Source of the DNA: Arthrobacter sp. cf158
GTDB taxonomy: Bacteria; Actinomycetota; Actinomycetes; Actinomycetales; Micrococcaceae
Length of the DNA: 64,000 nucleotides
NCBI RefSeq assembly: GCF_900106835.1
Contig: NZ_FNNR01000004.1
Location: 337,043-401,042, forward strand
Direction: 5' to 3'
The notes beneath the pieces were generated by a model that was not told the origin of the DNA, made no database searches, and worked only from the letters and a program-made list of their open reading frames with translations. Below, one piece after another: positions 8,599-16,313 of the stretch. The position numbers and the translations under genes are program-made. Position 1 is the first letter of the stretch, and every line of letters starts with the position of its first letter.

Positions 8599-9753
8599 TC
8601 AGACCCGGGCCCGCCCCAGCACACGCTCCCCAATCTCCCGCCCGATCTGCCGGAGCAAATCGCCTGACAACTCTGGGTCCTTGGAGGAGTCGCTGTCTGT
8701 GTAGTCAGTCAATGCGTACACCGACTCCAGGGACATCCCGGCCCACTGTTCCCGAGCCAGGAGCGAGCGACCCGCGACGGCGATGACTTGCCGGGTGCCG
8801 GAACGGCGGGCGACGGCGGCCGGCAGCTTCCCTGCCAGCGTCTGCTCGTCGATGCTGCCTTCGCCGGTAATAACCACATCGCAGGCCTCCTTGCGGACGT
8901 CGAAGTCCAGGAGGTCCAGGAAATAGTCCGCGCCGGAAACCTGCTTCGCGCCGAGCAGCAGGCACGCGAAGCCGATACCCCCGGCGCTGCCGGAACCAGG
9001 GTGGTGAGCCAGATCCACAGCGTCGGCCGGGAGAACCCCTGAATCGGCGAGCTTCGAGGCAAAGTGGGCCAATCCGGCGTCGAGCGTTGAAACGTCGGCG
9101 GAAGTGGCCCCCTTCTGCGGGCCGAAAACGGCAGCCGCGCCAGTGGGACCGCACAGCGGGTTGTGGACATCGCTGGCGAGGATGAGTTCGACGCCGGCAA
9201 GTTCCGGGACCAGCGAGCCGGTCACCGAGTGAACCTGGGACAGCGAGCGGCCGGAGCCCTCCAGTACATGCCCGGAGAGGTCGAGGAACTGCAGGCCCAA
9301 AGCGGTGAGCATGCCCATGCCGCCGTCGGTGCTGGAGCTGCCACCCAACGCCAAAACAACCCGGGATGCCCCAAGCCCCAACGTGAACAGGACAGCTTCG
9401 CCGAAACCGCGGCTTGTCGCGTCCATCGGCTCCAGAACAGCTCCGGGGAGGACGGCCAATCCGCAGGTGTTGGCGACCTCCACAACGGCCGTGATGCCGT
9501 CGAACGCAACAGTCGCGCGGACGGGCTGCCCGGTGGGACCAGCAACGGCGCAGCTGTGGCGGCCGAAGCCGGAGGCGATGGCGGCGTCCACACTGCCGTC
9601 ACCTCCGTCTGCGAGGGGAAGGATCTCGCAGTGGACCGTCCCGTTGCCGTGCGATCCCGCGGAGCGGAGCCCTTCAGCCAGGGCCTCGGCCACCTGGCCA
9701 GCGGTCAGGCTGCCCTTGAATTTGTCGGGAGCAATAAGAACGGTGGTGGTCAT
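8599..9753 (-). CDS. glxK: Glycerate kinase
   Basis: A 384-residue glycerate kinase of the GlxK/GarK type, phosphorylating D-glycerate. Seen in sequence: the N-terminus VLIAPDKFKGSLTA, the LALGGSSSTDGGMGML motif near residue 125, the GSGSAGGIGFA stretch, and DVVITGEGSIDEQTL, all typical of the family. The ATG at 9753 is used because DctA ends one base upstream; the open frame to 10002 is inside dctA. It is last in the LysR-dehydrogenase-DctA-kinase operon and would phosphorylate the glycerate made by the dehydrogenase. Confidence 0.95.
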   Translation of the reverse strand: MTTTVLIAPDKFKGSLTAGQVAEALAEGLRSAGSHGNGTVHCEILPLADGGDGSVDAAIASGFGRHSCAVAGPTGQPVRATVAFDGITAVVEVANTCGLAVLPGAVLEPMDATSRGFGEAVLFTLGLGASRVVLALGGSSSTDGGMGMLTALGLQFLDLSGHVLEGSGRSLSQVHSVTGSLVPELAGVELILASDVHNPLCGPTGAAAVFGPQKGATSADVSTLDAGLAHFASKLADSGVLPADAVDLAHHPGSGSAGGIGFACLLLGAKQVSGADYFLDLLDFDVRKEACDVVITGEGSIDEQTLAGKLPAAVARRSGTRQVIAVAGRSLLAREQWAGMSLESVYALTDYTDSDSSKDPELSGDLLRQIGREIGERVLGRARV

Positions 9754-9754
9754 G

Positions 9755-11248
9755 TCAGACGGTCTCCGAGTAGGCGGGGCGGCGGTCGGATGGGGAGGTG
9801 TGCCTGGCTGGCCCCTCGTCCGGTGAGCCGCTCTGGGCGGTGGGGTGCTTGGGGCCGTGGTGTCCGTATTCAGCCAGGTCATCGTCGATGTCGATGACGT
9901 CCTCCGCGTGGACAGGGTCCTCTGCGGGCATCGGCTCAACGGCTTCGCCCCGGAAGACGCGGCGGGCTCGATCAGCGTCGAGCGTGCGGTCCCACCAGGC
10001 AATGAAGAGCGTGGCGACGGCGTTGCCGGTGAAGTTCACCAGGGCGCGGCATTCAGACATGAACTTGTCGATGCCGAAGATGAGCATAATGCCGGCCGCG
10101 GGAATGGTCCCGAGGGTGGTGAGCGTGGCGGTAAGAGCAATGAATCCGCCACCCGCCACTCCTGCAGCGCCCTTGGACGTCAGCAGCATGACTGCCAGAA
10201 GTCCCAGCTGCTGCCCGATGGTGAGATCCGTGTTGGTGGCTTGGGCGATGTAGAGGGCCGCGAGGGACAGGTAAATGGCGGCGCCGTCCAGGTTGAAGCT
10301 GTATCCCGTGGGGACAACCAGGCCCACCGTTTCCTTCTTCACCCCGGCGTGCTCCAGTTTGCGCATCAGCCCAGGTAAGGCGGGTTCAGCAGTGGAGGTG
10401 CCCAGGATGAGCATGTACTCCTCTTTAAGGTGTCGGATCATGGTGAAGATGTTCAGCTTGAGGAACGCCATGACGGAGCCAAGGACAATCACCACGAACA
10501 GGATTGAGGTGACGTAGAACAGCGCGATCAGTCCACCCATGCTGGTGAGCGAGGAGACACCGTACTTGCCCACGGCGTAGGCCATGGCACCGAATGCGCC
10601 CAGCGGGGCGGCTTTCATGATGAAGCCCAGGATCTTGAACATCACGCTGGTGAGCCGCTGAATACCATCCAGCACAGGCGCCCCCACCTTGCCCATGGCA
10701 TTGAGGGCGATGCCGAAAACAACCGCGATGAAGATGATCTGCAGAATGTTGCCTTCAACGAAGGGCGAGACCATGCTCTCCGGAATGATGTGCGTGAGGA
10801 ACTGCCACCATTCCTGGTGTTGCCCTGCGTCGATCAGCTTGGCGGCCGAGTCCGAGGTCTGGATGGTGCTGGCATCCGCGTTGACGCCGTCACCCAGACG
10901 GAAGATGTTGATGGCCACGAGACCGAAAACCATGGCGCAAATGGTGCCGATCTGGAAGTAGGTCAGGGCCTTCAGACCCGTCATCCCCACCTTTTTCAGG
11001 TCGGCAACACTCGCGATGCCACCCACGATGGTCAGGAATACGATGGGGCCGATGAGCATCTTCATGGCATCAACGAACGTGGTGCCGATCGGTTCCATGG
11101 CGATGCCGGCCGCTGGAGCCAGCCACCCCACCAGGATGCCGATGACGATTGCGGTCAGTACCCAGAAGTACAGCTGTTTGTACCAGCGGGTCTTTGTTGG
11201 CGCCTTAGTGCGTGAAGCGGCTGCGCCGGCAGTGCTGCTGTGATCCAT
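9755..11248 (-). CDS. dctA: Dicarboxylate:cation symporter, DctA type
   Basis: A 497-residue SLC1/DAACS carrier with about eight transmembrane segments. Family motifs are present: MLIGPIVFLTIVGGIAS, GTSTAEPALPGLM (hairpin), VVPTGYSFNLDGAAIYLS and FMSECRALVNFTGNAVATLFIA. It has an acidic, His-rich C-terminal tail of about 70 residues, longer than in typical DctA. In this operon tartrate or malate is the likely substrate. A perfect 15-base hairpin lies between it and the dehydrogenase gene upstream. Confidence 0.92.
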   Translation of the reverse strand: MDHSSTAGAAASRTKAPTKTRWYKQLYFWVLTAIVIGILVGWLAPAAGIAMEPIGTTFVDAMKMLIGPIVFLTIVGGIASVADLKKVGMTGLKALTYFQIGTICAMVFGLVAINIFRLGDGVNADASTIQTSDSAAKLIDAGQHQEWWQFLTHIIPESMVSPFVEGNILQIIFIAVVFGIALNAMGKVGAPVLDGIQRLTSVMFKILGFIMKAAPLGAFGAMAYAVGKYGVSSLTSMGGLIALFYVTSILFVVIVLGSVMAFLKLNIFTMIRHLKEEYMLILGTSTAEPALPGLMRKLEHAGVKKETVGLVVPTGYSFNLDGAAIYLSLAALYIAQATNTDLTIGQQLGLLAVMLLTSKGAAGVAGGGFIALTATLTTLGTIPAAGIMLIFGIDKFMSECRALVNFTGNAVATLFIAWWDRTLDADRARRVFRGEAVEPMPAEDPVHAEDVIDIDDDLAEYGHHGPKHPTAQSGSPDEGPARHTSPSDRRPAYSETV

Positions 11249-11295
11249 GATTCCTACCTCGTTGTGGAATGTCTCTGGAGGGAAAACTGAAGGTG

Positions 11296-11331
11296 ACGTT
11301 CGACGGCGGCGGGCTGGCCGCCGTCGAACGT
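11296..11331. terminator. Intra-operon hairpin
   Basis: A perfect 15-base stem (arm ACGTTCGACGGCGGC) with loop GGGCTG, between the dehydrogenase stop and the dctA start. There is no clear U-tract, so it may attenuate or stabilise the mRNA rather than end it. Confidence 0.6.
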
Positions 11332-11342
11332 GAAGTCTGTGG

Positions 11343-12440
11343 TCAGACGGTCGCGAGAGTGGTGACGAGTGCCGCGATGATGGCCTCGGTGACGTCGTCG
11401 GTGGTGGCGGTGCCGCCGACGTCGCGGGTCAGATGGCCCGAGCCGGTGGCCGCTTCGATGGCTGCCTCCACACGGCGTGCTTCCTCATGCAGGCCGAAGT
11501 GGTCCAGCATGAGTGCGGCGCTGGCGATGGCACCGATCGGGTTGCTGATGCCCTGGCCGGCGATGTCAGGTGCAGATCCGTGAACAGGTTCGAACATGGA
11601 CGGGAAACGGCGCTCCGGATTGAGGTTGGCGCTCGCTGCCAGGCCCAGGCTGCCCGCGAGGGCAGAGCCGAGGTCCGAGAGGATATCTGCGTTCAGATTG
11701 GACGCCACCACAACGGACAGATCCTCGGGCTTGAGGATGAACTTGGCGCTCATGGCGTCAACCAGAACGCTCTCGGTCTGCACGTCCGGGTAATCCAGGG
11801 CGACGCGCTGGAAGGTTTCGTCCCAGAGGACCATGCCGTACTGCTGGGCATTGGATTTGGTGACCGAGGAAACTTTCTTCACGGTGCGGGTCCGGGCGAG
11901 ATCGAACGCGAACCGCATGATGCGCTCGCAACCTTTCTCCGTGAACAGCGCGGTCTGCAGTGCCACCTCGTTGCCAGGGCCGCGACCGCTCAGGTTGCGG
12001 CCGCCCAGTCCGGCGTATTCGCCTTCGCTGTTCTCGCGCACAACCACCCAGTCGAGTTCGGTGGTGTCTGCTTTGCGGAGCGGGGACTGGACTCCGGGGA
12101 GGAATTTGACCGGGCGGATGTTGGCCCACTGGTCAAAGTTCTGGGTGATGTTCAGGCGCAGGCCCCAAAGGCTGATGTGGTCCGGGACGTTCTCCCAGCC
12201 GACGGCTCCGAAGTAGATCGCGTCGAATTCCTTGAGGGCCTCCAAGCCCTTGGGGTCCATCATCTGCCCGGTCTTGGCGTAGTACTCCGAGCCCCAGGGG
12301 AACTCGGTCCAGTCGAAAGCGAACTTGCCGTTGGAGTCCTCAGCCAAGGCTGCCAGGACGCGGCGGCCCGCGGAAACAACTTCCTTACCTACACCGTCTG
12401 CGGGGATCGATGCGATGCTGAATTTCTGGGTGGCGCTCAT
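11343..12440 (-). CDS. Tartrate dehydrogenase / D-malate dehydrogenase family
   Basis: A 365-residue NAD-dependent beta-decarboxylating dehydrogenase of the isocitrate/isopropylmalate family. It has the tartrate/D-malate hallmarks: IPADGVGKEV, FDAIYFGAVGWENVPDHISLWGLRL, VVVRENSEGEYAGLGG, the Lys in VTKSNAQQYG, the metal Asp residues in VVASNLNADILSDLGS, and EPVHGSAPDIAG. The ATG at 12440 follows AGGAGGTAGGC. With tartrate the expected product is D-glycerate, the substrate of the kinase in the same operon. D-malate is the main alternative substrate. Confidence 0.9.
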   Translation of the reverse strand: MSATQKFSIASIPADGVGKEVVSAGRRVLAALAEDSNGKFAFDWTEFPWGSEYYAKTGQMMDPKGLEALKEFDAIYFGAVGWENVPDHISLWGLRLNITQNFDQWANIRPVKFLPGVQSPLRKADTTELDWVVVRENSEGEYAGLGGRNLSGRGPGNEVALQTALFTEKGCERIMRFAFDLARTRTVKKVSSVTKSNAQQYGMVLWDETFQRVALDYPDVQTESVLVDAMSAKFILKPEDLSVVVASNLNADILSDLGSALAGSLGLAASANLNPERRFPSMFEPVHGSAPDIAGQGISNPIGAIASAALMLDHFGLHEEARRVEAAIEAATGSGHLTRDVGGTATTDDVTEAIIAALVTTLATV

Positions 12441-12558
12441 GCCTACCTCCTCGTTGAGTTTGTTAGCAGTGAGCCTGTTATGCGGGTCACACTGTTCTTC
12501 CTCTTCAAGTACACGGGGGAGGGGTAGGCGGCGTCCAAGACTTAGTTTCGATACGCCT

Positions 12559-12575
12559 GATAGGTACTGCCTATC
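12559..12575. promoter_or_regulatory. LysR-type operator upstream of the dehydrogenase
   Basis: GATAGG, TACTG, CCTATC form a perfect 6-5-6 inverted repeat with the T-N11-A pattern of LysR sites. It overlaps the stop codon of the LysR gene and lies about 120 bases upstream of the dehydrogenase start. The same GATAG-N7-CTATC pattern recurs at 13516. Confidence 0.75.
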
Positions 12576-13479
12576 TGTCTGCTCCGGAGCCACGTTCAGT
12601 GTGGTGGGCAGCCACCTCCAGGAAGGCCTTTGCAGCCGGCGTGAGGTTCTCCTTCCGGCTGAGTACGGCCACATCGAGGTAATTCACCGGCTCCACCAGC
12701 AAAGTCCGAAGCCCGGCCTTATGAGCTGTAGGCGCCCACGACGACGGCATCACAGCATGCCCGACGCCCGCCAGCACCAGCGGCAGGATGGACGTCCGGT
12801 GCGCCACCTCCACCACGATCTCCACCTCTACCCCGTGGGCCAAAGCGTCGTCCACGAGCCACCGCATCAGAGATCCGCGCTGACTAGCGATGAGCCGGTG
12901 TCCGCCCAGTTCTTCGCGCTGGATGGCTGTGCCGGTGGAGGGGAATGTATCCGCATGCGGGTTGACGATCAGGATCAGCGGTTGCCGCTCGAGCTCCAGG
13001 ACCTCGACGCCGGGGACCTTGATGGGAGTCGATGAACCGGCAAGTCCAACCTCGTGACTGCCGCTGCGGACAGATTCAATGACTTCTTCCGGAGTGAAGG
13101 CGGCGCCGACATTCAGCCGAACCGACGGGTGAAGTTGGGTGAAGGAGGCAATCATTGACGTCAGGGGCTCTATGCCCGGAGACGGCATGGTGATGATGTC
13201 CAGTTTTCCGCTGCGGATCCCGCGCAGGGATTGAACGGCGGACTGCGCCGCGTCCAGGTCCCGCATCACGAGTCGGGCCGGGCCCACCAGTTCCTTGCCT
13301 GCTTCGCTGAGGACAGCCCGCCTGCCGATGCGGTGAAAAAGGGGAACGCCGAGCTCCTTCTCAAGGCCCGCTATGGTTTGGGACAGCGATGGCTGGGCGA
13401 TGAGGAGATGTTCAGCAGCGCGATTGAAGCCGTCGTGATCCACCACGGCGAGGAAGTATTTGAGCTTGCGCGTGTCCAT
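12571..13479 (-). CDS. LysR-family transcriptional regulator
   Basis: A 302-residue regulator. The N-terminal winged helix is typical (LKYFLAVVDHDGFNRAAEHLLIAQPSLSQTIAGLE, residues 6-40), followed by a linker and an effector domain from about residue 90. It is transcribed in the same direction as the tartrate genes, with identical palindromes both upstream of itself and after its stop. The likely effector is tartrate, malate or a related acid. Confidence 0.93.
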   Translation of the reverse strand: MDTRKLKYFLAVVDHDGFNRAAEHLLIAQPSLSQTIAGLEKELGVPLFHRIGRRAVLSEAGKELVGPARLVMRDLDAAQSAVQSLRGIRSGKLDIITMPSPGIEPLTSMIASFTQLHPSVRLNVGAAFTPEEVIESVRSGSHEVGLAGSSTPIKVPGVEVLELERQPLILIVNPHADTFPSTGTAIQREELGGHRLIASQRGSLMRWLVDDALAHGVEVEIVVEVAHRTSILPLVLAGVGHAVMPSSWAPTAHKAGLRTLLVEPVNYLDVAVLSRKENLTPAAKAFLEVAAHHTERGSGADR

Positions 13480-13555: not shown

Positions 13556-14458
13556 TCACACCACCAGCCGCAGCGGCGTGCGCCCCAGCTGAACCACAAC
13601 TTCCTGTCCCCACGACGCCGTCAGCCGGTCGTCTTCCATGCCGTCGCCGAACACCACCAGCTGATCGGACGCTACGGTCATCCGGAGAACCTCCCCGGCT
13701 TCCAGGACGCCTTCCGTCAGTGAGGCGCCGGTGACAGGTGAGGGCCAGGCTTCGCGGACAAACCACGCGAGCCGGGGATCGGTGGGTGCCGGCAAGGTAC
13801 GCCCGCCGCGTTCGAGGGCTATGGAGGCGCACCAGCCGGTGGCGCCGGTGCCCGTGGACACGATCAGGCCGGACGATGATTGCCGTTCGGTCTGTCCGCC
13901 CGCCTGGGTGAAACTCGGGGCCGTGATGGAGTATTTCGCCGATTGGTGTGAGGCATGCCCGATGAAAACTTCGTTGAGCGCCGAAAGCTGCTGGCCGTCG
14001 TCGAGGGTTGCTGTCACGGTGGTGAGGTCCTGGCAGTGCAGCCGCCCGACGTCACCTGCACTGAGCAAGGCAGCGGCGGCAGCCGGTGTGTGGCGGACCA
14101 GGATGCCAGGGTTGGCGCCGGGCTCGGGATCGATGCCGATCACGGGCTGGCCGTTCAGGTACTTGGCCACATTCGCCACCAATCCGTCTTGTCCCACCAC
14201 GGCGATGATGTCCTCCGCGGTGAGCAGGAAGCGGCTGAGGTCTGCGCGTTCCACCTCGGCTTGCCGCCAATCAGACGGTACCGAGGCCCTGATAGTTGCC
14301 AGTGCGTCAGTCAGGCGGTCATGCCGATCCTGAACGTCCTGGATTCCCCGGCCGCGGGTGCTGAGGAAGAATTCGGCCTGTCCGCGGGTGGCATGGCGGT
14401 CCAGGAGTTCCTGAAGTTCGGTCCGCCGGTGGACGATGACGATGCGCGGGGTTGCCAT
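13556..14458 (-). CDS. NAD(+) kinase-like protein
   Basis: A 300-residue protein resembling ATP-NAD/DAG-kinase superfamily members. The expected glycine-rich GGDGT element is replaced by VVGQDGLVAN at about residue 87, followed by PVIGIDPEPGANPGIL where NAD kinases have a similar strand. A later stretch, GLIVSTGTGATGW, matches the family's substrate region. It starts nine bases after the SPFH gene in the same operon, opposite an NrtR regulator of NAD metabolism, which supports a role linked to NAD or a related nucleotide. The altered motif leaves activity uncertain. Confidence 0.75.
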   Translation of the reverse strand: MATPRIVIVHRRTELQELLDRHATRGQAEFFLSTRGRGIQDVQDRHDRLTDALATIRASVPSDWRQAEVERADLSRFLLTAEDIIAVVGQDGLVANVAKYLNGQPVIGIDPEPGANPGILVRHTPAAAAALLSAGDVGRLHCQDLTTVTATLDDGQQLSALNEVFIGHASHQSAKYSITAPSFTQAGGQTERQSSSGLIVSTGTGATGWCASIALERGGRTLPAPTDPRLAWFVREAWPSPVTGASLTEGVLEAGEVLRMTVASDQLVVFGDGMEDDRLTASWGQEVVVQLGRTPLRLVV

Positions 14459-14467
14459 GGCGGGTCC

Positions 14468-15487
14468 TTACTTGGTGATTTCGGCGGTTGCGGCGGGTTC
14501 CTTGAACAGTCCGGCCAGGGCTCCGCTGAGCAGGTCCGGAGTGATGGTGAGGTTCCCGATGTTCGGCAGGCTGCCGGCTGCGTCCTTGAGCGCCAGGGCC
14601 AGCAGGGTGGCTTGTTCCATGCCCCGGTAAACCTCCATGGTGGCGGCTTCCCGGGCTGCGGCGGCCTCACCCACAAGACGGATTTGCTGGGCCTCGGCGG
14701 CAGCTCCGATGCCCTTTCGTTCAGCCGATCCTTGGGCCTCGATGAGTCCCGCGGCTGCCTTCTCTTCAGCAGCGCGCCGGGCGTTGGCGCCTTCCTGTGC
14801 TACCAGGTTCTCGCGGCGGACGGCCAGTTCGATCTGGCTCGCCATCTCGTTTTCGGAGATAGTGCGTTCACGTTCGACGGCGACCGCTCGCCTTTCGTAC
14901 ACAGCCCGGTCCGCTTCGGCTTGAAGCTGCTCACGAACCGGCGTCTGCAAAGCGCGTTCGACGTCGGCCTCCGGGCGAATCGCGAGGACCTGCACGGCCA
15001 GGATCTCGATGCCGGTGGACTGGAGCCTCGCGTCGGCACGGAGTGCGTCGGTCAGCACCAGCCGGAGTTGGCTGACGCCGCGTTCAAGGGCTTCGGCGAG
15101 CGTGGTGGTGGCGATCTGGTCTATCGCGTGGCTCTGGCACAGCTGGCCGATGATGGTGGACACCTGCTCGCGTCCGGTTGCCGGCGCCTTGCCCGCTGAC
15201 TGCAGTCCAAAGTCCAGGCGGGTTGAAACGGCCACGGGATCGATGAAGCGGTAGGTCACGTTGGCCTGAACGCTGACGTCCTGGTGGTCGCGGGTAATGG
15301 CGTGGAAGAGGGTGGGCAGTTCCTGATCGTCCACGGGAACCTCGCTGAGGACGGAGTTCGCGGGGCGGAAGAAAAATGCCTGTCCAACTCCCTGGTGCTT
15401 GACGGCGCCCTTCTGCAGGTGGACGACATAGCCGGTGGGACTGCCAAGGAAGTGGCTGATCCAGGGGTAGCGCTTGATGATGGCCAT
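14468..15487 (-). CDS. SPFH/Band 7 (prohibitin-stomatin) domain protein
   Basis: A 339-residue SPFH protein. The core is at about residues 20-190 (NVTYRFIDPVA, LRLVLTDALRADARLQSTGIEILAVQVLAIRPEADV). An Ala/Glu/Arg-rich coiled-coil follows at 190-285, and a C-terminal tail of about 45 residues. There is no clear N-terminal membrane helix. The ATG at 15487 follows AAGCGAGAAC; the frame extends to 15565 but that part covers the operators. It is first in a two-gene operon with the NAD-kinase-like protein and divergent from nrtR. Confidence 0.85.
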   Translation of the reverse strand: MAIIKRYPWISHFLGSPTGYVVHLQKGAVKHQGVGQAFFFRPANSVLSEVPVDDQELPTLFHAITRDHQDVSVQANVTYRFIDPVAVSTRLDFGLQSAGKAPATGREQVSTIIGQLCQSHAIDQIATTTLAEALERGVSQLRLVLTDALRADARLQSTGIEILAVQVLAIRPEADVERALQTPVREQLQAEADRAVYERRAVAVERERTISENEMASQIELAVRRENLVAQEGANARRAAEEKAAAGLIEAQGSAERKGIGAAAEAQQIRLVGEAAAAREAATMEVYRGMEQATLLALALKDAAGSLPNIGNLTITPDLLSGALAGLFKEPAATAEITK

Positions 15488-15510
15488 GATGTTCTCGCTT
15501 TCATTTGTTC

Positions 15511-15525
15511 TCGTCAATTTGACGA
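15511..15525. promoter_or_regulatory. NrtR-type operator, proximal to the SPFH gene
   Basis: A perfect palindrome: TCGTCAA, T, TTGACGA, followed by TAA. It lies 24 bases upstream of the SPFH start. A similar sequence occurs 45 bases away. Confidence 0.65.
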
Positions 15526-15555
15526 TAACTAAACAGTAGAGCGGCCTCGGCATTA

Positions 15556-15570
15556 TTGTCAACATGACGA
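15556..15570. promoter_or_regulatory. NrtR-type operator, proximal to nrtR
   Basis: An imperfect copy (TTGTCAA, C, ATGACGA, then TAA) 21 bases upstream of the nrtR ATG. On the minus strand it contains TTGACA, a good -35 element for the SPFH operon, with TACTGT 18 bases downstream as a possible -10. Confidence 0.6.
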
Positions 15571-15590
15571 TAAGTACCTACGATTGATGC

Positions 15591-16313
15591 ATGCCTGAAT
15601 CCCATCCGGCGCCTGAGCGCTTCCCGGTGACCGTCGACGTCGTCGCCCTTACTGTTCGCGATGGCGAGCTGAACGTCCTGCTCATCACCCGTCTCATCGA
15701 GCCCTTCCGCGGCAAACTCGCACTGCCGGGCGGCTTCGTCCTCGCAGGGGAGGACCTGCTTGAGGCGGCGGGGCGGGAACTGGCGGAGGAGACCGGCGTC
15801 GAACATCTCCCCGGGCACTTGGAGCAATTGGGAAGCTATGGCCCGAAGGGGCGCGACCCCCGTGGTGACGTCCTGACCGTTGCCCACCTGCTGTTGGCGC
15901 CGGACTTCCCGGTGCTGGCGGCGGGCAGCGACGCCGAACAGGCCGCGTGGTACCCGGTTGCTGAGGTTCCGGAATTGGCCTTCGACCACGCGCGTATCCT
16001 GGACGACGCACTGGAGAGGGCCAAGGCAAAACTTGAATACTCGCCGCTCGGTGCGGCCTTCTGCGGTGAGGAATTCACCATCGCCCAACTCCGGGCCGTC
16101 TATGAAGCTGTGTGGGGCACACGCCTGGATCCGCGGAACTTCCACCGAAAAGCGACCGGGACGCCCGGCTTCCTGGAAGAAGCCGGACGGATGACAACAG
16201 GCGACGCCGGGCGCCCGGCTGCACTGTTCAGGCTCGCCCCCGAGGCGCGTCCGACGGCGGGCCAACCCACGCGCGCGGTCCTGAACCCGCCGTTGATGCG
16301 CCCGAGGGACTAA
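15591..16313 (+). CDS. nrtR: NrtR-type Nudix transcriptional regulator
   Basis: A 240-residue protein with an N-terminal Nudix domain (residues 10-140, box GGFVLAGEDL to RELAEETGVE, intact) fused to a C-terminal winged helix (FTIAQLRAVYEAVWGTRLDPRNFHRKATG, 160-190). This architecture is the NrtR family, which binds ADP-ribose and represses NAD-salvage genes. The start is directly after two palindromes, with no strong ribosome site. It faces the SPFH/NAD-kinase-like operon, its probable target. Confidence 0.88.
   Translation: MPESHPAPERFPVTVDVVALTVRDGELNVLLITRLIEPFRGKLALPGGFVLAGEDLLEAAGRELAEETGVEHLPGHLEQLGSYGPKGRDPRGDVLTVAHLLLAPDFPVLAAGSDAEQAAWYPVAEVPELAFDHARILDDALERAKAKLEYSPLGAAFCGEEFTIAQLRAVYEAVWGTRLDPRNFHRKATGTPGFLEEAGRMTTGDAGRPAALFRLAPEARPTAGQPTRAVLNPPLMRPRD

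What the first reader, a model, noticed from the sequence alone, without database searches (positions are those of the whole stretch)
13556..16313. NrtR-type regulator opposite an SPFH and NAD-kinase-like operon
NrtR regulators control NAD-related genes using ADP-ribose as effector. Here the divergent operon encodes a membrane scaffold-type SPFH protein and an unusual NAD-kinase-like protein, with two TGACGA-containing palindromes 45 bases apart, one overlapping a TTGACA promoter element. The link between SPFH and NAD metabolism is not one I know well.
Basis: partly seen in the sequence, partly recalled or inferred. Interest (0 to 1): 0.6.

Follow-up and report, generated by a model that had tools for sequence, protein, structure and literature searches.

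The report
NrtR-controlled SPFH and NAD-kinase-like pair
A gene switch of the type that senses broken-down NAD faces, and very probably controls, a two-gene unit (a scaffold protein and a relative of the mitochondrial NAD kinase) that recurs in many unrelated bacteria and that we did not find described.

Summary
In detail: an NrtR-family regulator (15591-16313, +) faces an operon of SPFH (14468-15487, -) and a divergent NAD-kinase-like gene (13556-14458, -), with palindromes at 15511-15525 and 15556-15570. It recurs: SPFH is the upstream partner in 91 of 91 loci read, and NrtR is divergent in 58. A 23-bp operator (GTTATCGTCA-N3-TGACGATAAC) occurs in 54 of 54 actinobacterial nrtR/SPFH gaps and twice in 52; 50 of these pairs are 33-34 or 42-45 bp apart, about one helical turn's difference. 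In the window's genome its 21-base form occurs only there. Streptomyces without an adjacent NrtR mostly keep the operator pair, have a related NrtR elsewhere, and carry the operator before pncB, an NAD-salvage gene, in 16 of 16 genomes checked. The kinase-like protein folds like human NADK2 (Z 24.5) and keeps the catalytic Asp, but GGDG has become GQDG. The SPFH protein lacks a predicted membrane helix. Module NrtRs of Actinobacteria keep an intact Nudix box in 53 of 54; nadABC-type NrtRs in 0 of 30. DNA binding, effector and kinase activity are untested.

The parts
13556..14458 (-). NAD-kinase-like protein, 300 aa (NADK2-type fold; GGDG motif reads GQDG; catalytic Asp91, Asn162-Glu163 kept)
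14468..15487 (-). SPFH / Band_7 protein, 339 aa, no predicted transmembrane helix; first gene of the operon
15591..16313 (+). NrtR-family regulator, 240 aa: Nudix domain with an intact Nudix box plus NrtR winged helix
15507..15529 (.). operator O1 (23-bp palindrome, matrix score 33.0), over the expected start of the SPFH transcript
15552..15574 (.). operator O2 (23-bp palindrome, matrix score 29.5), containing the putative -35 elements of both divergent promoters
15533..15562 (-). putative SPFH-operon promoter: TTGACA (15562-15557), 18 nt, TACTGT (15538-15533); TTGACA and the TA of the -10 are invariant in 12 aligned loci. Read from the sequence; the promoter scan did not report it
15556..15584 (+). 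putative nrtR promoter: TTGTCA, 17 nt, TACGAT; would give a nearly leaderless nrtR transcript

Best explanation
This is an accessory NAD-homeostasis module under its own NrtR-type repressor. An NrtR dimer sits on each of two helically phased operators. O2 covers the -35 elements of both divergent promoters and O1 covers the start of the SPFH transcript, so nrtR and the SPFH / NADK-like operon are held down together. When NAD is broken down and ADP-ribose (or a close relative) accumulates, it binds the Nudix domain and NrtR lets go. The cell then makes an NADK2-type kinase together with an SPFH protein that probably forms a ring or shell holding it, so that NAD(H) is converted to NADP(H) when NAD is being consumed. 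Because this NrtR keeps a complete Nudix box in Actinobacteria, it may also hydrolyse its effector and so reset the switch. Shown: gene order, homology, operator conservation, operator spacing, shared operator with pncB in Streptomyces. Inferred: DNA binding, repression, effector identity, kinase activity and substrate, SPFH-kinase complex, reset by hydrolysis.
For: SPFH is the next partner upstream, same strand, in 91 of 91 loci (gap at most 60 bases in 86, up to 369), and NrtR is divergent to it in 58 of 91. In a separate sample of 396 actinobacterial genomes, 12 of the 12 carriers besides the window's own have SPFH adjacent and 9 of 12 have the operator pair. Operator in 54 of 54 actinobacterial nrtR/SPFH gaps, two in 52, 50 of these 33-34 or 42-45 bp apart. 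Only two places of the 21-base form in the window's genome. 19 of 29 actinobacterial loci without adjacent NrtR keep a 33-34 bp pair; 23 of the 27 genomes concerned were searched and 23 of 23 hold an NrtR elsewhere; in 15 of the 16 Streptomyces among them one NrtR falls in a clade nested among the module NrtRs. Operator before pncB in 16 of 16 Streptomyces and 0 of 7 other genomes. NADK2 is best by sequence profile (E 1.9e-20) and by fold (Z 24.5); catalytic Asp, Asn, a region-II Thr and Asp-Gly are invariant in 44 of 44. Nudix box intact in 53 of 54 actinobacterial module NrtRs against 0 of 30 nad-type NrtRs. The genome has a separate canonical NAD kinase, so this one is an extra.
Against: The GGDG motif that defines NAD kinases is not exact (GQDG, or GPDG in 6 of 44) and Pfam NAD_kinase is below its cut-off, so the substrate or even the activity may differ. 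The NrtR also passes Pfam's AraR_C cut-off and its best PDB match is the arabinose regulator AraR, so the effector need not be ADP-ribose; it misses NCBIfam's narrow NrtR equivalog cut-off, 113.8 against 400 bits. Six of 7 non-actinobacterial NrtRs found at module loci lack the intact Nudix box, so reset by hydrolysis cannot be general. Of the 29 actinobacterial loci without adjacent NrtR, 6 show no operator; in 4 of these (L059, L063, L088, L095) upstream sequence is present. Two of the 12 carriers in the separate sample have no site and one has a single site. In the window's own genome pncB has no such operator, and Streptomyces without the module were not checked for the pncB site. The NrtR clade that holds the module regulators also holds NrtRs that stand beside other genes, so clade membership alone does not fix the target. 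The SPFH model has pTM 0.53 only and no SPFH-kinase interface was tested.
Confidence: 0.6

Rival explanations
1. The NADK-like protein is no NAD kinase: it phosphorylates another nucleotide (ADP-ribose, a cyclic or modified ADP-ribose, or a nucleotide toxin), or is a pseudo-kinase that senses NAD(P) and gates the SPFH assembly.
For: The second Gly of the phosphate-binding GGDG loop is Gln in 38 and Pro in 6 of 44 sequences, GQDG in 12 of 12 of a wider set; where canonical kinases have Tyr in region II (aligned) it has Trp in 44 of 44; the genome already has a canonical NAD kinase.
Against: Catalytic Asp, Asn-Glu/Asp and region-II Thr are kept; overall fold and N-terminal region match human NADK2 best.
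Confidence: 0.25
2. It is a conflict or defence module: NAD loss or ADP-ribosylation by a phage or toxin raises ADP-ribose, NrtR is released, and SPFH plus kinase protect NAD or restrict the attacker.
For: Patchy, apparently mobile distribution (17 of 197 family genomes, 13 of 396 phylum genomes, 64 of 72,556 plasmid records). Nudix-HTH regulators have been proposed for ADP-ribosylglycohydrolase conflict systems (PMC9503650, section 3.8 read). A strong operator precedes a STAND NTPase with a SIR2-like N-terminal stretch in one Streptomyces (L219; PADLOC SIR2 match weak, E 0.0052).
Against: No PADLOC match for kinase or SPFH; no recurring defence neighbour among the clusters listed for 91 loci; the operator is shared with a housekeeping salvage gene, pncB; none in 50,697 phage records.
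Confidence: 0.2
3. The NrtR only autoregulates and the divergent genes are neighbours by chance.
For: O2 lies next to nrtR, and MsNrtR of M. smegmatis is an auto-repressor (PMC6800001, abstract start and passages).
Against: The divergent pairing recurs in Actinobacteria and in alpha-, beta- and gammaproteobacteria (L028, L030, L031, L032, L034); O1 overlies the probable SPFH start; most Streptomyces loci keep both operators before SPFH with no nrtR there.
Confidence: 0.05

Closest known systems
NrtR of nadABC operons (Mycobacterium smegmatis MsNrtR, PMC6800001; the same genome's own copy at G000 C24)
   Same: Nudix plus NrtR winged helix; next to NAD genes; 23-bp palindrome beginning GTT and ending AAC (MsNrtR: GTTTTCGA-N7-TCGAAAAC)
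   Different: MsNrtR and 30 of 30 nad-type NrtRs of the family sample have a changed Nudix box; operator core in two relatives is TAGTC..GACTA or TGGTC..GACCA rather than TCGTC..GACGA; separate clade; target is de novo NAD synthesis, not SPFH/kinase
Human mitochondrial NAD kinase NADK2 (PDB 7r4j/7r4l, 7n29)
   Same: Best profile match (E 1.9e-20), best fold match (Z 24.5, 2.9 A over 278 residues); shared ALNEVFIG and SSGL..TGTG stretches
   Different: 23% identity; GGDGT is GQDGL; the human protein has an extra stretch after the TGTG motif; here bacterial and in an operon with SPFH
SPFH proteins (HflK/C, stomatin, prohibitin, erlin, flotillin; vault MVP)
   Same: Band_7 domain and long helix; Foldseek best HflK/C E 9.7e-13, MVP 7.5e-8
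   Different: No predicted N-terminal transmembrane helix and a kinase-like gene in place of an NfeD partner; a 2009 survey reports only subfamilies SPFH8 and SPFH9 as soluble, and its text does not contain nudix, NAD or kinase (PMC2636767, passages and word counts)
ADP-ribosylglycohydrolase systems with a Nudix-HTH regulator (PMC9503650)
   Same: Nudix-HTH repressor proposed to sense ADP-ribose; accessory systems (section 3.8 read)
   Different: Partner genes are ADP-ribosylglycohydrolase, phosphatases and chaperones; that paper's text holds no SPFH or NADK

Membership tests
NrtR family regulators | N-terminal Nudix domain joined to the NrtR winged helix | tested here: met
   PF00293 67.1 bits (cut-off 21.1), PF21906 56.5 bits (cut-off 27)
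NrtR family regulators | NCBIfam equivalog NF050029 score | tested here: not met
   113.8 bits against a cut-off of 400: a member of the family at large, not of that narrow equivalog
NrtR family regulators | 21-23 bp palindromic operator in its own intergenic region | tested here: met
   (sequence only; binding untested)
NrtR family regulators | regulon made of NAD-metabolic genes | tested here: inconclusive
   operator before pncB in 16 of 16 Streptomyces with a related NrtR, but not before pncB in the window's own genome, where the NADK-like gene is the only candidate NAD gene
NrtR family regulators | ADP-ribose releases it from DNA | not testable with these tools
   needs a gel shift
active Nudix hydrolases | Nudix box GX5EX7REUXEEXGU | tested here: met
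   GFVLAGEDLLEAAGRELAEETGV in the window; 53 of 54 actinobacterial module NrtRs, 1 of 7 others
NAD kinases | NADK fold | tested here: met
   pLDDT 92.5, pTM 0.89; NADK2 Z 24.5, canonical NADKs about 20-22
NAD kinases | GGDG motif | tested here: not met
   GQDG 38 of 44, GPDG 6 of 44; the Asp is kept in 44 of 44
NAD kinases | NE/D short motif and conserved region II | tested here: met
   Asn 44 of 44, Glu 41 / Asp 3; Thr207 44 of 44, but Trp in place of Tyr 44 of 44; motif definitions from passages of PMC8553519
NAD kinases | Pfam NAD_kinase gathering score | tested here: not met
   12.6 bits against 25.5
NAD kinases | phosphorylates NAD | not testable with these tools
   enzyme assay needed; therefore filed as NAD-kinase-like
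SPFH proteins | Band_7 domain | tested here: met
   59 bits, cut-off 23.6
SPFH proteins | N-terminal transmembrane segment of the classic subfamilies | tested here: not met
   highest 19-residue hydropathy 1.18; 1 of 43 family members reaches 1.6

The most novel reading that the evidence does not exclude
A soluble SPFH ring or shell that houses or positions an NADK2-type kinase: an inducible, scaffolded NADP-making (or ADP-ribose-processing) body in bacteria, switched by an NrtR that senses and destroys its own effector. On this reading human mitochondrial NADK2 would be a descendant or sister of the SPFH-partnered bacterial kinase family (no tree was made to test that).
Probability: 0.2. Interest if true: 0.85.

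Novelty: new variant of a known kind. Interest (0 to 1): 0.62.

Why it matters
NrtR regulons, NAD kinases and SPFH proteins are each known, but their union in one conserved, mobile unit was not found in the papers searched. It gives a concrete test of what a bacterial SPFH assembly does for a metabolic enzyme, names an uncharacterised NADK2-like family, and offers an NrtR with an intact Nudix box in which sensing and hydrolysis of the same ligand can be separated.

Tried and rejected
Phage origin: no match in 50,697 phage records, two distant loci in viral contigs. Defence annotation: no PADLOC hit for kinase or SPFH; a weak PDC-S07 hit (E 0.0022) covers only the Nudix part. A fixed fourth gene: among the 40 largest clusters listed, none other recurs like SPFH; many are shadow reading frames or Streptomyces-only neighbours, and the one I checked (9 loci) is a short-chain dehydrogenase by eye, a very common family. 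A wider regulon in the window's genome: the 15-base core with two mismatches is hardly enriched (220 against 190 for the control), and the one exact 15-base match elsewhere (C27, L118) lacks the full operator. pnuC / NadR-like operon as a target: in G063 its promoter has two matches 35 bp apart, but the 4 other close orthologues found, one in a genome without the module, have a different core (TTATTATCA..TGATAATAA and variants), so another regulator is likelier. Proteobacterial operators: overall palindrome scores were not significant in L031, L032 and L034; three GTC-N5-GAC cores in each of L031 and L034 (0 of 20,000 shuffles reach three) are suggestive, but these two loci are close relatives, and the core is absent in L028, L030 and L032; L028 and L030 have other, strong palindromes. 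Rodionov 2008, the founding NrtR paper, is not held; what I know of it is recall, so I cannot exclude that it lists this pairing.

Rows and limits: shuffle controls were single-base shuffles and the matrix was built from the same 54 gaps, so the separate 12-genome sample is the fairer test. Nine plasmid loci were chosen by hand from 64 records. Of 31 loci without any NrtR hit, two (L027, L116) are not actinobacterial and are left out of the 29; neither has an operator. Of the 6 actinobacterial loci without operator, L067 and L096 begin too near a contig end to tell. Of 27 genomes with such loci, 4 (L067, L096, L105, L112) were not searched for an NrtR elsewhere. The 30 NrtRs taken as 'elsewhere' are the best-scoring ones given loci, not all matches.
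Full report
What is there. The window (a Paenarthrobacter/Arthrobacter genome, judged from its closest named relatives) carries three genes in the reported place: an NAD-kinase-like gene (13556-14458, -), an SPFH gene (14468-15487, -) nine bases upstream of it, and an NrtR-type regulator (15591-16313, +) facing them across 103 bases. Pfam supports Band_7, NUDIX and NrtR_WHD over their cut-offs; NAD_kinase is only hinted at by Pfam and by weak NCBIfam matches.

Palindromes. TCGTCAATTTGACGA (15511-15525) and TTGTCAACATGACGA (15556-15570) are 45 bases apart. Extended to 23 bases they read GTTCTCGTCAATTTGACGATAAC and ATTATTGTCAACATGACGATAAG on the + strand (L117). The 21-base form with up to three mismatches occurs at these two places only in the 5.1-Mb genome; the reversed control pattern has none. 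Aligning the window with 11 relatives shows both sites strongly conserved, with TTGACA and the TA of a -10 invariant for the SPFH direction; in the nrtR direction a TTGTCA / TACGAT promoter-like match is reported in the window. O2 thus holds both putative -35 elements and O1 overlies the probable SPFH transcript start: a layout for joint repression. The promoter assignments are sequence readings, not measurements, and the scan itself did not report the SPFH one.

The unit recurs. SPFH lies upstream on the same strand in 91 of 91 loci read (9 plasmid, 80 genome, 2 viral), with a gap of at most 60 bases in 86 and 369 at most. An NrtR homologue is found in 60 of 91 and is divergent and next to SPFH in 58, at 48-244 bases in 57 and 821 in one; in Treponema (L029) and L115 it lies farther off and is not divergent. 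In an even sample of 396 actinobacterial genomes 13 carry the kinase-like gene, the window's own included; the other 12 all have SPFH adjacent and 9 have the operator pair, 1 has a single site, 2 none; part of an NrtR falls within the short flanks in 4. In the family sample 17 of 197 carry it, one of them broken. So it is an accessory unit that appears to move, made of these genes; no fourth partner recurs in the same way.

The operator rule. A symmetric matrix over 54 actinobacterial nrtR/SPFH gaps gives GTTATCGTCA-N3-TGACGATAAC. All 54 have one site of at least 14 and 52 have two; single-base shuffles of the same gaps reached 12.9 at most in 10,800 trials. Spacing is 33-34 in 36, 42-45 in 14, and 51 or 733 in the other two of the 52. 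The 44-45 spacing is that of the Micrococcaceae loci and appears again in two genomes of the separate sample (L175, L176). A difference close to one turn of DNA suggests that both repressor dimers must sit on the same face. This is inference from spacing, and related loci are not independent.

A prediction that held. Of 29 actinobacterial loci without an adjacent NrtR, 19 keep a 33-34 bp pair before SPFH, 4 have one site, 6 none. If NrtR controls them it should be elsewhere: 23 of the 27 genomes concerned were searched and all 23 hold an NrtR homologue. In 15 of the 16 Streptomyces among them one falls in a clade of 15 nested among the module NrtRs; in the sixteenth (G197) the corresponding match comes in two pieces and was not in the tree. 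That NrtR has a site of the same kind just before it in six of six Streptomyces genomes scanned (G198, G200, G205, G206, G207, G209). The two genomes in which the search found only a nad-type NrtR (G217, G218) have no operator before SPFH, as expected. Two other loci without operator (L059, L063) lie in genomes that do hold NrtRs of the module clade, which is not explained. That clade also contains NrtRs beside an ADP-ribosylglycohydrolase or an adenylosuccinate-synthetase-like gene, so clade membership does not by itself name the target.

Link to NAD metabolism. In 16 of 16 Streptomyces genomes with the module and no adjacent NrtR the same operator stands 22-111 bases before the start of the pncB match (scores 17.7-22.2; highest of 300 shuffles per locus 14.9), and in 0 of 7 other genomes, the window's included. 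pncB was identified by Pfam NAPRTase. Which Streptomyces NrtR owns the pncB site is not proved, and Streptomyces without the module were not checked. In the window's genome a second NrtR stands before genes that read as nadA, nadB and nadC (gene names from sequence reading). In two relatives, G009 and G039, the palindrome before that NrtR has the core TAGTC..GACTA or TGGTC..GACCA, so the two paralogues may be insulated by about one base pair per half site.

The regulator. The module NrtR keeps the complete Nudix box in 53 of 54 actinobacterial cases, in 1 of 7 others, and in 24 of 30 NrtRs found elsewhere in module genomes (of the six that fail, two are nad-type); nad-type NrtRs of the family sample keep it in 0 of 30. 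MsNrtR has no detectable hydrolase activity and three changed residues in its box (PMC6800001, passages). So this clade may be both sensor and enzyme, but the proteobacterial members show that an intact box is not essential to the unit. The best PDB match is AraR, followed by two 'MutT/nudix family' entries (2fml, 3gz5; that 3gz5 is the Shewanella NrtR is recall), so the ligand is open.

The kinase-like protein. Profile search finds human NADK2 far ahead of canonical NADKs (E 1.9e-20 against 1.4e-6), and the model (pLDDT 92.5) matches NADK2 best (Z 24.5, 278 residues; canonical NADKs about 20-22). Of the three motifs that define NAD kinases (PMC8553519, passages) the GGDG motif is changed to GQDG or GPDG with its Asp kept, the NE/D motif is met, and region II is met with Trp for Tyr. 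It is built on the kinase plan but is not filed as an NAD kinase. A canonical NAD kinase is present elsewhere in the genome (C17, 62 bits).

The SPFH protein. The model is an SPFH domain plus a helix of about 115 residues, confident in the domain and poor at the C-terminus (mean pLDDT 83.6, pTM 0.53); Foldseek finds HflK/C, stomatin, erlin, prohibitin, flotillin and, lower, the vault protein. No transmembrane helix is predicted in the window protein; 1 of 43 relatives reaches a usual threshold. It may be one of the soluble subfamilies SPFH8 or SPFH9 named in PMC2636767 (passages), which I did not test.

What is known. No held paper contains both NrtR and SPFH; the one with NrtR, Nudix and NAD kinase is a plant and mammal review seen as a search listing only. 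By word count the 2009 SPFH survey contains neither nudix, NAD nor kinase, a 2026 Pseudomonas SPFH study neither nudix nor NAD, and the NAD/ADP-ribose conflict survey no SPFH or NADK. The founding NrtR paper was not available. Absence here means absence from these searches.

Verdict. I rate it a new variant of a known kind: an NrtR regulon with a new cargo, widely conserved and directly testable.

Noticed in passing
L219 3063-6449 (G205 C68): A strong operator (score 28.9) lies directly before a 1126-aa protein with a weak STAND NTPase match whose N-terminus looks like a SIR2 domain by eye (PADLOC SIR2 match only E 0.0052); possible defence gene under NrtR control in one Streptomyces.
   Followed up: partly
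L158 4326-6061; similar in L160, L166, L168: A second Streptomyces NrtR beside an ADP-ribosylglycohydrolase (PF03747, checked in L158 only), like the published ADP-ribosylglycohydrolase systems with a Nudix-HTH regulator.
   Followed up: partly
L167 2638-5555; similar in L162, L164: NrtR next to a protein that looks VWA-like by eye (no Pfam hit) and an adenylosuccinate-synthetase-like protein (PF00709 in L167).
   Followed up: no
L163 4843-6463: In Allorhizocola (genome of L059) an NrtR faces a nucleoside-phosphorylase family gene (PF01048) across two sites 44 bp apart: same layout, other cargo.
   Followed up: no
L247-L251, within about 70 bases before pnuC: pnuC / NadR-like operons of Arthrobacter relatives carry palindromes with cores like TTATTATCA-N3-TGATAATAA, two sites 33-35 bp apart in three of five, close to but distinct from the NrtR operator.
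   Followed up: partly
L031, L034 and plasmid hits H74-H80: The NADK-like gene, or C-terminal remnants of it, occurs on plasmids of Proteus, Acinetobacter, Pasteurella and relatives; in the two stretches read (L031, L034) it stands beside tet(J) or tet(H), suggesting these tet genes were once picked up from a genome where the module was their neighbour.
   Followed up: no
L019 (G152 C1:3718223-3718423): A second, C-terminal copy of the NADK-like gene lies just downstream of the intact one in one relative.
   Followed up: no
window 8599-13479 (-): LysR regulator, isocitrate/tartrate-dehydrogenase-type enzyme, a DctA-like transporter and a glycerate-kinase-like gene next to the module look like a tartrate-use operon (function by recall; Pfam checked only for the first two).
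   Followed up: no
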